A stretch of DNA of 18,860 bases from Clostridia bacterium (GTDB lineage Bacteria > Bacillota > Clostridia > Christensenellales > CAG-314), in NCBI GenBank assembly GCA_017452035.1, contig JAFTNE010000049.1:1-18860 (forward strand). Direction: 5' to 3'. A program made the translations under genes and the position numbers. The notes beneath the pieces are model-generated. The model saw only the letters and a program-made list of their open reading frames with translations, was not told the DNA's origin and ran no database searches. Below, one piece after another: positions 2,731 to 14,016 of this stretch (position 1 is the stretch's first letter; each line of letters opens with the position of its first letter).

Positions 2731-5700
2731 TTACTCTGTTCTTAATGCAACAACAGGGTCTTTTTTGCTTGCGCTACGTGATGGAATTATACCAGCAATC
2801 AACGTCAAGAACATGCTTATTGCAACAAGTATCACGGCAAACTCAACAGGCAACACTGCCTTCAAGCTGGCAAGGCCCGTCAGTGCAAACAAAATTGCGT
2901 TTAACGGTATACAGAACAGATAGGTAAACAGTACGCCGATTAAGCCAGAGGCAAAACCTATGATAACCGTTTCCACGTTGAACATACCAGCAACGTCACG
3001 CTTGGACGCACCCACAGCGCGCAAAATACCAATTTCCTTTGTGCGTTCCTGTACGGATATCAAGGTGATTACGCCAATCATGATGGAGGAAACGATAAGA
3101 GAAATGGATACAAATGCAATCAACACGTAGGTAATTGCTTGGATGATGGTAGTAATACCACTCATCAAAAGTCCAACGTAGTCGGTGTATTTGATTTGGC
3201 TATCCTCTTCCTTACCTTCGTTAAACTTGTCGATATCTGCCTCAATAACCTGTTTGTTTTCAAAGCTGGATGCATACAAATTGATGGCAGACGGACTGGC
3301 AATATCCAAGCATCCAAGTTTAAGCAGGTTGTCGTCATAGGTAGTGTCAGCAAACTCAATTACGAGGTCAAACCACTTTACCTTTGTCTCCATATCTGCA
3401 TCAGCAAGCGCTTGATCCATATCGTCAGCGTAGGCAGGCGTTGGATAGTATTTGTTGGCATCTGGGTAGTCTTGCATCTTCTTTTCTTGTGCCTTCATTG
3501 GCGCGTAGGAAGAAAGCATTGTCATAATTTGCGAGTCACTTGCAGTGTCGATATAGTTTGCCATTGTTTGGCTAAACATCGCCATTTTGCTTTTTAGTTC
3601 CGTCCTAATTTCCTTCATACCCTCTTCGGTGGATGCCTTGGCAACAAGTTCAGCTTTGGCTTGTGCAATCTCCTCTTCTGTGGGGGTGGTCATTATTTGA
3701 ACATACAAAGTGTGTTTTTGCCTGTCATCTTGCTTGCCAATGTGTTCAGTAACGGTATCTGCCTTTTCTTGGTCGGAGATGTGGTTGTTACGGAAGTACT
3801 TTCCTGTAAATACGTCAACGTCTGGGTTGGCCTTTTGCGCATCGGCAATTGCAGAGCTTTGTGAGTTGGCAATTACGTGTTCAACAAGTTTGTAGGTGTA
3901 GCAAAGCGTACCACCAAGCATATGGTTGGATGCATCTGGGTTTGGACGAATGATACCGGTAATTTTGAGTGTCAATCCCTTGTCTTCGTCTTCGTACAAA
4001 CCTTCCAAACCACCTTCCAACTCTCTTAGGTCGTACCAAGTGTCGCCTTGTTGGTTGTAGCACTCGTGTTCAAAAATGGTGCGATAGGTCAAGCTCATCA
4101 CTTCGTCAAACGACCACTTTTTAGAGGTTGTCTCCGGTGGTTTTTTGTCGGAGTTTACTGCGTCAATGATGGCCTCGATTTCTTCGGTGGATTTAAGTCC
4201 CAACGCGTACAACGTCATGTCGTCAATTTCGTTGTTTTTGTCAACAACCAAAATAATTTCGTTTGCGGCAGTGGGCCAGCGTCCGTGGATGAGGTCGTAT
4301 TGGTCTTTGATGAGGTCGTTAACAACGCCACCATCCTTGTTGGGCAAAATTTCCTCCCAAATGGTCATACCAAAAACGGAGTTCATCATCATTTCTGCCA
4401 TACCACCCGTGCCAATGCCCACGTTGGATACGTCCACGCCGTAAATTTCGCCAAGCAGTGTCATCATCAAATCTTGTGTATCAGCCTCGATAACTTCACC
4501 CTCGGTGTCTTTGGTGTAAATTTGTAGGTCTAAGTCGTAACCGTAGTGCACGCCACTGATTGCGTTGTAAATATCGCTTTGGGGATTTTTAAGTTGCTCA
4601 TCAAGGTGCGCTTTGTAACCCTTGAGGTCGTTTTCGCTTTGAGATTTTTCACTTAACGATTTTGTCAAGTTGTAAAATGCAAGCTTTTCGTAGATGTTGT
4701 CGTCCACCTCGTGGTCGCCACCTGATTGTGCGCCAGCAGCGAACACTTGGAACATTGCCGACATATCTCCATTGGACTGTTGCAACGTCAGTGGGTAGGA
4801 TGCCAACGTTTCTTCCTGCACGGAGTTGATATACCCCGACATACCAGTGGACACGGCGTAAATAAGCGCAATACCAATGATACCAATACTACCAGCAAAA
4901 CTGGTCAAAATTGTACGTCCCTTTTTGGAAAACAGGTTTTTTAGCGACAACATAAAGGATGTCCAAAAAGATAGCGTTGGTTTCTTTTCTTTGCGCTTTT
5001 TCTTTTTGTTTTTCTTGTCCATTTGTTCGCGAACGTAGGCAACGTCCTCGTTTACGCGTTGTTCGAGCAGTTCGTCCTCGGTAAGGGGCTTGCTGTCGGA
5101 AATTACCAAACCATCAAGCATACGTACAATACGTGTTGCGTATTGTTCGGCAAGCTCGGGGTTGTGGGTAACCATAATAACCAAGCGTTTTTTGGATATT
5201 TCCTTCAAAATATCCATTACTTGTACGCTTGTTTCGGTATCCAGTGCGCCCGTTGGTTCGTCTGCCAAGATGATATCTGGGTTGTTTACAATAGCACGCG
5301 CAATTGCAACACGTTGCATTTGACCACCACTCATTTCGCTTGGACGTTTGTGGTACATGTTTTTGAGGCCCACTTGGTCCAACGCTTCCATTGCACGACG
5401 GCGACGCTCGGCCTTTTTTACGCCGGAAAGTGCCAATGCAATTTCTACGTTTTGCAATACCGTTTGGTGAGGAATGAGGTTGTAACTTTGGAACACAAAA
5501 CCAATTGTGTAGTTACGGTAGGCGTCCCAGTCCCTATCTTTGAAGTCTTTTGTAGATTTGCCATTGATGATAAGGTCGCCAGTGGTGTACTTATCCAAAC
5601 CACCAATAATGTTCAATAGGGTGGTTTTTCCACAGCCAGATTGACCAAGTATGGCAACAAACTCGCTCTTTCTAAAATCCAGCGATACGCCACGCAGTGC

Positions 5701-9617: not shown

Positions 9618-10397
9618 ATGTCAGCAACTCCCGATCAAACACTTAAGTTCACAATAGATTTCAACTCTGTATTGATGAATCACCAAATGCCCCCAGAGGA
9701 AAAAATCCCCAAACTTTTGCAACTGCAAACACGCCTTGACGAATTACCCAATGAGCAGTCCAAGGTGCTTTTCAAGTTGCAGTCCAACCTTTCCATTGGT
9801 CAGTGCTACGTTGATGCGCATCAGAAGTACAACCTAACCAACGTTGTGGAGGAGTGCAAAATCTTGCTACACAAATTGGAAGAGTACGATTTTGCCCACC
9901 AACCACAAAAGGTGTGGGGGTATCTTGCCGAAAGATTTCAATCTTACTACGGCGAACTGATTGACCTTTGTCAAGCAAAAAACCACCAACGCGACATTGC
10001 CTACTGTCACCAAGAGGTCGCTCGCATTTGGGACAGGGCAGGCAACGAATCCAACTGTGTTCGCGCCTTTGTTTTGTCCAACGTGGCACTGTCGAAAGTG
10101 CCAGGCAAATTTGCGTTGACACAAGCGCAACTGGTGGAGCAATTCCCTGACGAAATGGAGTACATCCAGCAAATTTTTAGCACACGTACGCTAAAAAACG
10201 ACCCAATTGAGCAGACGGAAGAGTACATTGCCGTATACGATGATGCCGAGCGTATTATCCAAGGGCTAATCGAGCAACAAGGACGTATGCCACGCACACC
10301 TGACCAGTATTGGAACATCAAGCAAGAGGTGTTGGAGTTGCACTTTGGCATCACTTGGCGCAGTCCACGAGTTATGAACCCCGGTGTGAGGTTTTAA
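9618..10397 (+). CDS. hypothetical protein, helical, upstream of the AAA+ locus
   Basis: 259 residues, not recognised. No signal peptide or membrane helix. It is Gln- and Glu-rich and mostly helical, with segments such as KVLFKLQSNLSIGQCYVDA and IAYCHQEVARIWDRAGNESNCVRAFVLSN that resemble TPR-like helix pairs. The C-terminal tail (QYWNIKQEVLELHFGITWRSP, then MNPGVRF) is Trp/Pro-rich and ends abruptly; I have an impression of similar tails in uncharacterised Firmicutes proteins but cannot verify it. ATG 9618 is set by AAAGGTGG 4 nt upstream and by the promoter at 9559-9587, which excludes the 40-codon upstream extension. The next gene begins 154 nt downstream behind its own promoter, so the two may be separately expressed. 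A partner or adaptor role for the AAA+ protein is only a guess from adjacency. Confidence 0.75.
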   Translation: MSATPDQTLKFTIDFNSVLMNHQMPPEEKIPKLLQLQTRLDELPNEQSKVLFKLQSNLSIGQCYVDAHQKYNLTNVVEECKILLHKLEEYDFAHQPQKVWGYLAERFQSYYGELIDLCQAKNHQRDIAYCHQEVARIWDRAGNESNCVRAFVLSNVALSKVPGKFALTQAQLVEQFPDEMEYIQQIFSTRTLKNDPIEQTEEYIAVYDDAERIIQGLIEQQGRMPRTPDQYWNIKQEVLELHFGITWRSPRVMNPGVRF

Positions 10398-10479: not shown

Positions 10480-10551
10480 TAATAAGATAATCATAAAAAA
10501 AAACAAAAGTTTCACACAAAAGTAAAGTTTACAAAAAAAGGAGCATTGACC

Positions 10552-12738
10552 ATGCAAAAAAGTAAATTTTTCAGATTTATACTTGCTTGTTGCCAAACGG
10601 AAGAAGATATCAACAAGGGTAAGCCTGTTAGTATCAACGTGTTTTTTGGCACAGTTTTAAAGGCTCTTGCCATTGGCAAAGAGGCTTTTAGAGGCGCAGT
10701 GGCAGACTCGGATTTGGACGAAATGGGCGTAGAATTGGATGCCGTAAAGGAAAAGGTATCAGTACATACATCCGACTTTGTTCAAGCTCACGACAATTTG
10801 TTTAGCTACATTGCCTCCAACAGTGGTGGATTTTTGGATAACTACTTGTATGCAAAAATCATGACCGAGTTCGAAATCAACAAGCCAGCGTCTTACGTTA
10901 TTACAGTAACGGACGTTTGCCAAAAGATTTTGGACGACCCAACACAAGCTATCAAATACGCTTTGAACATGGGCGAACAACCACAAACATCATCAGAAAG
11001 CACACCTCTTGATGACGACTTTATCTCCACACTTTTGGGAGGACCAAAAAACAAGCACACCCCAGGTGGCGCGCAAACAGCAACCCCACCAACGGTTGAA
11101 CCAAAGGGCAAACCCACAGGCATGATTGCAGATATTGTCAAGCGCACCGATAGTATTCGTGAAATTTTGAGCAAGTCTGTCTACGGTCAAGACCACGCAA
11201 TCAGCGCATTTGCATCCGGCTACTTCCAAGCCGAGCTTACTGCTGCCACACAAAAGCATCGCGATAAACCCAAGGCAACATTCCTTTTTGCAGGTCCTCC
11301 AGGAACGGGTAAAACATTCCTTTCCGAACAAGTTGCTCAAGCATTGAAACTTCCGTTTAGAAGATTTGATATGAGCGAGTACTCCGACAAGGAGGCCAAC
11401 CTCGAGTTTGCCGGCAGTGACAAAGTTTACAAAAACGGTGCCGAAGGTAACGTTACCGGCTTTGTTGCCAAAAACCCCAAGTGTATCTTGCTCTTTGACG
11501 AGGTAGAAAAAGCCCACCTCAACATCATTCACCTGTTCTTGCAAATTTTGGACGCTGGTCGTTTGCGTGATAACTACACAGACGAAGATGTAAGCTTTAC
11601 CGATGCCATCATCATCTTTACAACCAACGCTGGTCGTCAAATGTACGAAGATGAGTCCATCAACCTGCTGACAGCATCTCGCAAGAGTATTTTGCAAGCT
11701 CTTTCCACTGACGTCAACCCCATTACAGGTGTGGCATTGTTCCCACCTGCAATTTGCTCACGCTTTGCATTTGGTAACGTAATTATGTTCAACCACATGT
11801 CGGCAAGTCACCTTATGCAAATTGCCGATGGCGAAATGCGCAAGCAAGCAAAGGCTATCATTACCAAGTCTAACGTAAAAATTGAGTTGGACGAACGCCT
11901 TCCCTATGCCGTTATTTTTAGCGAAGGTGGCAAGGCAGATGCGCGTACTATCAAGGGTAAAAGTATCAGCTTTGTTTACCAAGAGCTGTACGAATTGTTG
12001 CGCTTGGTAAACTCCGAAAACAACAACTACTCGGTAGAAGAACTCAAATCTATCAAGTTTGAGTTGTTACTTCCCGAAAACGAACGCGTTCTTGCATTGT
12101 TTGAACGTCAAGAAAAACCCGACGTGTTATTATTTGCTGACGAAGACGTTGGCAAGAAATGCACCTCTTTGATCAAGAGTGCAAACGTACACGTTGCCAA
12201 CGACCAAGAGGAAGCTCTTACCATTTTGGAAAAGAACGATATTGCCATTATCGTTTGCGACCTCAAATGCGGACAAAAGGGTGCAACAGCCAACGCTTTG
12301 AGTGTAGAAGATACCGACTCTTGTGGTCGCGACTTCTTTGACTACCTGACCTCTCGTGGTAAAGGTCCACTTTACGTTTTGGCGCATGACGAAAAGGAAA
12401 TCAGCCGTGAGGAGTGGTTCTCCCTTTCCAAGGCTGGCGCAACGGGTGTGCTCATTATGAAGGGTGGCACAGTATCGCTGGATAAGGCTGTTATTCGCGA
12501 AACAACCAAGGTATTCCAACACAAAAACCTGTTTGAACTTGGCCGTGCAAACAAGGTTGTAACATTTAAGACGTTGCAACAAATTTCCGAAGACGGAAAA
12601 GAGGCAAAAATTGTACTGTTCGATTTTAGACTTAAAACAGCAGTGGATGCACAAGATAGCCACGGCGTTTTGGATGCAGTTAGCAAACCAAACGTACATT
12701 TTAGTGACGTTATCGGCGCAAAGGATGCCAAGGACTAA
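10552..12738 (+). CDS. ClpB-D2-like AAA+ ATPase with receiver-like domain; 5' part of a split AAA+/FtsH fusion
   Basis: 728 residues up to TAA 12736-12738. Residues 1-140 are helical and unassigned, possibly Clp-N-like; 145-190 is a Pro/Thr-rich linker. The AAA+ module (about 195-490) has Walker A GPPGTGKT 248-255, Walker B CILLFDE 311-317 in the Clp-type context DEVEKAH...LQILDAGRLRD, sensor-1 Asn359 (TTNAG), a candidate arginine finger in CSRF near 404, and sensor-2-like DARTIKG near 463. Residues 523-660 look like a receiver fold: VLLFADED, Asp570 in IIVCDLK, AGATGVLIMKG with Lys637. The last residues (NVHFSDVIGAKDAKD) are the lead-in of an FtsH AAA domain that continues past the stop. ATG 10552 is preferred over TTG 10546 since AAAAGGAG (10536-10543) sits 8 nt before it. 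No membrane segment. Likely an unfoldase-type ATPase. Confidence 0.85.
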   Translation: MQKSKFFRFILACCQTEEDINKGKPVSINVFFGTVLKALAIGKEAFRGAVADSDLDEMGVELDAVKEKVSVHTSDFVQAHDNLFSYIASNSGGFLDNYLYAKIMTEFEINKPASYVITVTDVCQKILDDPTQAIKYALNMGEQPQTSSESTPLDDDFISTLLGGPKNKHTPGGAQTATPPTVEPKGKPTGMIADIVKRTDSIREILSKSVYGQDHAISAFASGYFQAELTAATQKHRDKPKATFLFAGPPGTGKTFLSEQVAQALKLPFRRFDMSEYSDKEANLEFAGSDKVYKNGAEGNVTGFVAKNPKCILLFDEVEKAHLNIIHLFLQILDAGRLRDNYTDEDVSFTDAIIIFTTNAGRQMYEDESINLLTASRKSILQALSTDVNPITGVALFPPAICSRFAFGNVIMFNHMSASHLMQIADGEMRKQAKAIITKSNVKIELDERLPYAVIFSEGGKADARTIKGKSISFVYQELYELLRLVNSENNNYSVEELKSIKFELLLPENERVLALFERQEKPDVLLFADEDVGKKCTSLIKSANVHVANDQEEALTILEKNDIAIIVCDLKCGQKGATANALSVEDTDSCGRDFFDYLTSRGKGPLYVLAHDEKEISREEWFSLSKAGATGVLIMKGGTVSLDKAVIRETTKVFQHKNLFELGRANKVVTFKTLQQISEDGKEAKIVLFDFRLKTAVDAQDSHGVLDAVSKPNVHFSDVIGAKDAKD
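11293..11315 (+). repeat. 23-bp perfect direct repeat, copy 1 (Walker A of the first AAA+ module)
   Basis: Identical over 23 nt to 12823-12845. Both copies encode GPPGTGKT with the same codon at every position. Confidence 0.85.
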
Positions 12739-12813
12739 CTTACCTATTTTATTGAGTATCTCAAAAACCCAGCCAAGTTCCGTCGCCAAGGAGTAAAGCC
12801 ACCAAAGGGAATT

Positions 12814-14016
12814 TTGTTGTATGGTCCTCCAGGAACGGGTAAAACCTTGCTTGCCAAAGCAATGGCTGGCGAAAGTGACGTAACGTTCATTCGTGCCGAA
12901 GGTAACCAATTTTTGAAACGCTACGTTGGCGAAGGTCCTCAAGCAGTACACGATTTGTTCAAAACTGCACGCAAGTATGCTCCATCCATTTTGTTTATTG
13001 ACGAAATTGATGCCATCGGTAAAAACCGTGGCGACTCTGCTCGCGACACAAGTGACGTTTTGACATCCTTCTTGACAGAGATGGACGGATTTAACGTGGA
13101 TATTGAAAGACCAGTATTTGTACTTGCTGCTACCAACTTTGAAGTAGAGCAAGGAACGTCTCGCTCGCTTGACCCAGCATTGCTTCGCCGTTTTGACAGA
13201 CGTATTTACGTTGAACTTCCCAACAAGGAAGAGCGTATTCAATTTATCAACTACAAAATTGCAAAAATTGCCAGCCACAACTTGACGGCTGAGCAAATTG
13301 AAAACCTTGCAATTCGCTCTACAGGTTCTAGCCTTGCCGACCTCGACTCGGTATTTGAAATGGCAATTCGTGATGCTATCAAAGCTGGTTGCAATACTTT
13401 GACTGATGCCATTTTGGAAGAGGCGTTTGAACGCTTTACCAGTGGTGACATCAAAAAGTGGGCTGGTGACGAACTGCTTAGAACTGCTCGTCACGAGGCA
13501 GGCCATGCACTTGTTTGCTGGTATGCTGGCGAAAAGCCCAGTTATCTTACCATTGTTGCGCGCGCAAGCCACGGTGGCTACATGCAACACGACTCCCACG
13601 AAGACAAGGGTTCCTACACCAAAAAGGAACTGTTGGATCGTGTTCGTACATCCCTTGCTGGTAGATGTGCCGAAATGGTTTACTATGGCGACGAGGATGG
13701 CATTTCCACCGGTGCAAGTGGCGACCTTCGTCATGCCACACAAACCATCACAAATATGATTTGCTACTACGGCATGGACGAAAAAATTGGTATGAGTAGT
13801 GTAGATATGGATGCTGTAAAACGCTCTCCTTACTACATGCAAATTATCACACGTGTTAACGAAATTTTGCAAGAACAACTGCAAATTACCAAGCGTATTA
13901 TCGAGGCTAACAAGCACGCAATCGACAACCTTGTAAAAGCTTTGTTGGAGGAAAACTCCCTTAAACAAAAGGAAATTGACGACATTTTGTCTAAGTCGGG
14001 CGTTGTACGCATATAG
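12814..14016 (+). CDS. FtsH-type AAA+ ATPase with M41 zinc peptidase; 3' part of the split fusion
   Basis: Homology to FtsH begins before this point, at 12739 directly after the TAA (LTYFIEYLKNPAKFRRQ...). TTG 12814 is merely the first plausible start, with a weak AAGGGA site, and a product starting there would lack the first strand of its AAA domain. Visible motifs: Walker A GPPGTGKT (12823 on), pore loop YVGEG in place of the FtsH FVG, Walker B ILFIDEIDAIG, the second region of homology ending in LRRFDRR with both arginine fingers but without the PG of the usual LRPGRFDR, zinc motif HEAGH at 13492-13506, and the third zinc ligand Asp in GASGD (13723-13725). The peptidase is therefore complete. 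FtsH normally has two N-terminal membrane helices; none exist here or in the upstream half, so the enzyme would be soluble. May be a pseudogene remnant. Confidence 0.7.
   Translation: MLYGPPGTGKTLLAKAMAGESDVTFIRAEGNQFLKRYVGEGPQAVHDLFKTARKYAPSILFIDEIDAIGKNRGDSARDTSDVLTSFLTEMDGFNVDIERPVFVLAATNFEVEQGTSRSLDPALLRRFDRRIYVELPNKEERIQFINYKIAKIASHNLTAEQIENLAIRSTGSSLADLDSVFEMAIRDAIKAGCNTLTDAILEEAFERFTSGDIKKWAGDELLRTARHEAGHALVCWYAGEKPSYLTIVARASHGGYMQHDSHEDKGSYTKKELLDRVRTSLAGRCAEMVYYGDEDGISTGASGDLRHATQTITNMICYYGMDEKIGMSSVDMDAVKRSPYYMQIITRVNEILQEQLQITKRIIEANKHAIDNLVKALLEENSLKQKEIDDILSKSGVVRI
12823..12845 (+). repeat. 23-bp perfect direct repeat, copy 2 (Walker A of the FtsH-type module)
   Basis: Second copy of the 23-bp segment at 11293-11315, 1530 bp apart and in the same reading frame. 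Confidence 0.85.

What the first reader, a model, noticed from the sequence alone, without database searches (positions are those of the whole stretch)
12736..12738. In-frame TAA splits an AAA+/FtsH fusion inside a conserved motif
The 728-residue frame ends with NVHFSDVIGAKDAKD and the same frame resumes after the TAA with LTYFIEYLKNPAKF. FtsH proteins have one unbroken segment here (pattern VxFxDVxGxxEAKEEL...FLKxPxKF), with Glu at the stop position. Coding signal is undamaged on both sides: all ATPase and zinc-peptidase residues are intact. That argues against old decay and for a recent GAA-to-TAA change, an assembly error, or readthrough (the stop is followed by C, often considered a leaky context). 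TAA is the normal terminator of neighbouring genes, so global code reassignment is unlikely.
Basis: partly seen in the sequence, partly recalled or inferred. Interest (0 to 1): 0.75.

Follow-up and report, generated by a model that had tools for sequence, protein, structure and literature searches.

The report
One-assembly stop in protease gene
A gene for a large protein-degrading machine in an uncultured gut bacterium carries a stop codon in its middle, but its known close relatives have the gene whole, so this is most likely an ordinary private mutation or a sequencing error and not a hidden coding trick.

Summary
One reading frame (10552-14016) is cut once, by TAA at 12736-12738, inside the conserved segment before the Walker A motif of an FtsH-type AAA+/M41 protease fused to a Clp-type AAA+ module. 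The aligned residue is Glu in all 119 other homologues listed, seven of them 97-100% identical; the stop form is listed once, from this contig (P0015). Of 27 other genomes with the gene among 396 searched, 25 show no stop in the match, one shows only its terminator, and one stop (G339) was not located. Programmed readthrough, recoding and a two-gene reading are not supported. Two readings stay level without reads: a recent nonsense mutation in a dispensable gene (3 of 25 genomes of the genus carry it; two further residues unseen in homologues), or a consensus error (264 contigs, 79% complete; essential rpoC in the same assembly has a one-base frameshift but is in one frame in 5 of 5 congeners with a hit). 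Ordinary; low interest.

The parts
10537..10543 (+). Shine-Dalgarno-like AAAGGAG before ATG 10552
   Evidence: read from sequence
10552..12735 (+). first half of the frame, 728 aa: N-terminal region, Clp-type AAA+ module, middle region without Pfam match, first residues of the FtsH-type AAA segment
11266..11685 (+). Clp-type AAA+ module (Pfam AAA_2; residues 239-374 in the window half, 239-378 in P0001)
11587..11589 (+). codon 346, Asp in this copy; Glu in 119 of 119 homologues
12736..12738 (+). in-frame TAA; aligned residue 729 is Glu in 119 of 119 homologues
12739..14016 (+). second half of the frame, 425 aa, ending in TAG
12781..12783 (+). codon 744, Arg in this copy; Arg in 0 of 119 homologues
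12811..13215 (+). FtsH-type AAA module (residues 754-888 by P0001)
13480..13986 (+). Peptidase M41 domain (residues 977-1145 by P0001), HEAGH at residues 981-985

Best explanation
A single fusion gene, dispensable in this genus, has taken a recent one-base nonsense change in one lineage. Translation would stop after 728 residues, leaving a Clp-type AAA+ module without its FtsH-type motor and zinc protease. A restart is unlikely to give a working motor: the first in-frame start candidates (TTG 12814, TTG 12817) lie two to three codons before Walker A (12823-12846), so a product from them would lack the conserved segment in front of it, and the other candidates lie after Walker A. Shown: the stop, its absence from the listed relatives, the sporadic distribution, two extra unusual residues. 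Inferred: that the change exists in the living organism, that the product is truncated, that function is lost. It is level with the error reading below.
For: Glu at residue 729 in 119 of 119 homologues; seven full-length sequences of 97-100% identity are whole. Only 3 of 25 genomes of the genus (this one included) and 28 of 396 of the order match P0001 at E <= 1e-90, so absence is tolerated; a separate FtsH frame of 646 aa with an N-terminal hydrophobic segment is open in the same genome. This copy has 3 residues never seen in the 119 (the stop, 346, 744), 2 of them among 150 invariant columns; the ABC control of the same contig has 0 never-seen and 0 of 235, and 1036 residues of RpoC have 0 and 0 of 431. 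Of the 5 positions at which the window differs from P0001, 4 (346, 394, 729, 744) are states shared by none of the other six near-identical sequences.
Against: The stop was the reason for looking, so it should not count as evidence of drift: without it there are 2 never-seen residues, 1 at an invariant column, and 1 of 149 against 0 of 666 is about p = 0.18 by hand (with the stop, 2 of 150 against 0 of 666, about 0.03). More distant homologues also carry never-seen residues, up to 36. The assembly contains at least one gene-breaking error (rpoC). The stop form has no second contig. No conspecific DNA or reads could be examined.
Confidence: 0.47

Rival explanations
1. Consensus error of a fragmentary, probably low-coverage metagenome assembly; the organism's gene is whole.
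For: 264 contigs, 79% complete. rpoC of the same assembly (G000:C206, L169) lies in two frames with one one-base gap in 3726 aligned bases; of 6 congeners searched, 5 have it in one frame and 1 (G010) had no hit; P0241, identical over the 1036 residues of the second piece, is whole. Among 123 gene pairs judged coding, G000 shows 2 clear mid-gene stops (this one and an acetyltransferase ORF) and 1 unresolved; in the reverse direction 0 of 138 are mid-gene, the 6 rows with stops lying within 24 residues of the match start. Cooley and Wright 2024 (PMC11017572; abstract and section list seen) report that many putative pseudogenes come from assembly errors and that high coverage is needed.
Against: RpoC shows no substitution in 1036 residues against P0241 (its first 222 residues show one, position 4), and the ABC control shows no never-seen residue, so substitution errors look rare in these two; both clear stops lie in genes that are plausibly dispensable. 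Coverage itself is not known.
Confidence: 0.47
2. Programmed or strain-specific readthrough (or local recoding) of the TAA gives both a 728-aa product and the full-length 1154-aa protease.
For: Both flanks look coding; nothing in the DNA alone forbids some readthrough.
Against: 0 of 119 other listed homologues have a stop here; 12 of 13 other frames of the window that I listed end in TAA; none of the 4 tRNAs found in 80 fetched contigs of G000 (388 kb, about a third of the genome) reads TAA, and the window has no tRNA; most of the genome's tRNA genes were not seen.
Confidence: 0.02
3. Two separate genes, the second starting after the stop.
For: TTG 12814 follows a purine-rich stretch (AAAGGGA).
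Against: Homologues are single frames (in one search G378 and G370 appear as two pieces, G378 at contig ends, G370 within one open frame). A start at 12814 removes the conserved segment before Walker A, and the AAAGGGA encodes conserved protein residues there.
Confidence: 0.01

Closest known systems
FtsH (ATP-dependent zinc metalloprotease; NCBIfam TIGR01241)
   Same: Second half matches over the AAA and M41 domains (3.8e-95); a profile of 34 family members matches solved FtsH chains such as 4ww0, 6gcn and 2ce7 over profile positions about 723-1170
   Different: 319.9 bits for the second half, under the curated cut-off of 600; no strongly hydrophobic segment (maximum 19-residue hydropathy 1.35 in P0001, against 2.64 in the genome's ordinary FtsH); a Clp-type AAA+ module and some 700 residues stand in front
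ClpA/ClpB second AAA+ module (TIGR02639, TIGR03346)
   Same: Residues about 199-450 match (ClpA 8.4e-45, ClpB 6e-31)
   Different: Only one such module; far below the cut-offs (153.2 against 993.15 and 107.6 against 1232.1 bits)
Nonsense pseudogenes, real or made by assembly, in bacterial genomes (Cooley and Wright 2024, abstract seen)
   Same: A single private internal stop in an otherwise open frame, in a fragmentary assembly that also breaks an essential gene
   Different: Nothing distinctive found

Membership tests
FtsH family | AAA module plus M41 peptidase with HEAGH | tested here: met
   in the frame after the stop
FtsH family | curated whole-protein score (TIGR01241, 600 bits) | tested here: not met
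   319.9 bits, second half only
FtsH family | N-terminal membrane anchor | tested here: not met
   hydropathy maximum 1.35 in P0001; a simple measure
Clp-FtsH fusion family (uncharacterised; called AAA family ATPase where a source names it) | AAA_2, AAA and M41 in one chain of about 1150 aa | tested here: met
   34 of 34 members scanned, chosen from the 120 listed; the window copy meets it only if the stop is ignored
Conserved programmed readthrough gene | stop conserved among homologues | tested here: not met
   0 of 119
Genome with TAA reassigned | TAA not used as terminator | tested here: not met
   12 of 13 other listed frames of the window end in TAA
Assembly artefact | reads disagree with consensus | not testable with these tools
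   no reads at hand

The most novel reading that the evidence does not exclude
The stop is real and kept: this lineage makes a protease-less 728-aa Clp-type AAA+ protein, alone or beside a little full-length enzyme from leaky termination, so that the unfoldase and protease functions of a two-motor fusion are uncoupled.
Probability: 0.03. Interest if true: 0.5.

Novelty: already known. Interest (0 to 1): 0.12.

Why it matters
Mainly as a caution: a lone stop in one metagenome assembly should be compared with near-identical relatives and with essential genes of the same assembly before readthrough is proposed. The fusion itself (a Clp-type plus FtsH-type two-motor protease without an evident membrane segment, sporadic in one order of gut Clostridia) is the more interesting object; two paper searches (listings only) showed nothing on it.

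Tried and rejected
Readthrough, recoding and two-gene readings were tested against homologues and not supported.

A two-way search for frame breaks between G000 (81 contigs with the window, 407 kb of 1.24 Mb) and G016 (60 stretches, 892 kb of about 1.5 Mb) gave 23 stop rows in one direction and 2 in the other, and 4 and 2 frameshift rows. Filtered by third-position mismatches, 123 pairs were kept and 16 set aside as shadow or unclear in the first direction, 138 and 7 in the reverse. Of the 10 kept G000 rows with stops, 7 lie at the ends of the match, 2 are clear mid-gene stops (the window, L150) and 1 (L044, two stops in an 84-aa match) is unresolved. Of the 6 frameshift rows, two are rpoC seen from both sides; one L054 row is a gap in the leader before a ribosomal-protein-L13-like start on the other strand (named by eye); L186 is a gap in the spacer before ATG 1262; the other L054 row and the L050 row were not settled.

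Other conserved genes: rpoB, no stop reported in its covered parts; secA in two pieces at contig ends, no stop; ileS matches on several contigs, none with a stop; polC weak matches only, one with a TAA, not followed. Defence-family models matched only the AAA modules. No conspecific DNA was found, only proteins, so synonymous change could not be used. Literature: three searches (listings seen), one abstract. In this revision I took account of the stop being the reason for the test and moved the two leading odds from 0.49 and 0.45 to 0.47 each.

Full report
What is there. The frame 10552-14016 encodes a 1154-residue design interrupted once, at codon 729 (TAA, 12736-12738). The first half holds a Clp-type AAA+ module (AAA_2, 2e-29; best NCBIfam match ClpA, 153 bits against a cut-off of 993) and the second an FtsH-type AAA module and an M41 peptidase. 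In the near-identical relative P0001 the domains fall at residues 239-378, 754-888 and 977-1145. No strong membrane segment is seen in P0001 by a simple hydropathy scan.

Homologues. A protein search with the read-through frame scored 8000 candidates, found 5862 and listed the best 120. One of these (P0015, 728 aa, 1 contig of 18860 bases) is the window's own truncated product. The other 119 all have Glu at the aligned position. Seven of them (P0001-P0007, 97-100% identity) are full-length with Glu.

Distribution. 3 of 25 genomes of the genus, this one included, and 28 of 396 of the order (drawn from a larger group, two candidates scored per genome) match P0001 at E <= 1e-90. Incomplete genomes may hide some copies. 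Of the 27 other genomes, 25 show no stop inside the match; G052 shows one TAG, which is the gene's terminator, since the frame in L007 ends there; G339 shows one TGA that I could not locate. The genome has a separate FtsH frame of 646 aa on contig C154.

Is the copy decaying? Within the 15 closest sequences the window has 3 private residues at columns otherwise invariant (E346D, the stop, L744R); P0001-P0006 have none, but P0007-P0014 have 2 to 88. Measured against all 119, the window has 3 residues never seen elsewhere, 2 at invariant columns; P0001-P0006 have 0, while most of the 13 less similar sequences examined have 1 to 36, and four of them 1 to 4 at invariant columns. Controls from the same assembly: the ABC transporter protein of this contig has 0 never-seen residues and 0 of 235 invariant columns changed, though 2 private residues within its closest 15; 1036 residues of RpoC have 0 and 0 of 431. 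With the stop left out, since it prompted the test, 2 never-seen residues remain, 1 at an invariant column, which is weak evidence.

Is the assembly sound? rpoC, single-copy and essential by general knowledge, lies in two frames with one gap in 3726 aligned bases against G016. It is in one frame in 5 of 6 congeners searched, the sixth having no hit, and whole in P0241, identical over the second piece. That frameshift is best read as an assembly or sequencing error. Of 123 coding pairs, G000 shows this stop, one other clear mid-gene stop (an acetyltransferase ORF) and one unresolved case; of 138 in the reverse direction, none is mid-gene. So errors exist here, though substitutions look rare in the two controls.

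Readthrough and recoding. None of the 119 homologues has a stop here; TAA ends 12 of 13 other listed frames of the window; no tRNA for TAA among the 4 found in about a third of the genome or in the window. In-frame restarts lie two to three codons before Walker A or after it.

Conclusion. The stop is a private change, recent by the near-identity of its whole relatives: a real nonsense allele in a dispensable gene (0.47) or a consensus error (0.47). Either way it is ordinary.

Noticed in passing
L169 (G000:C206), about 4080-4104: rpoC of the window's own assembly is split into two frames by a one-base gap; 5 of 5 congeners with a hit have it in one frame.
   Followed up: yes
L150 (G000:C52), 3204-3635: An acetyltransferase ORF, whose intact relative in G016 matches aminoglycoside 6'-N-acetyltransferase models, also has one in-frame stop in this assembly.
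   Followed up: no
L035 9546-14599; L036-L039: Distant relatives of the fusion lie near other signalling genes: in L035 a YbjN-like protein, a vWA protein and a Ser/Thr kinase. YbjN-like frames in L036 and L037 and kinase-like frames in L038 and L039 were only read by eye. None of the 8 window neighbours scanned with Pfam matched these.
   Followed up: partly
window 9618-10397 (+): Protein of about 259 aa without a Pfam match, directly upstream of the fusion; kept at the same place in G016 (69% identity) but without a match in L035-L039.
   Followed up: partly
window 10552-14016 and its family: A two-motor protease design (Clp-type AAA+ plus FtsH-type AAA-M41) called only AAA family ATPase where a source names it; the stretch between the two AAA modules has no Pfam match in the window half.
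   Followed up: partly
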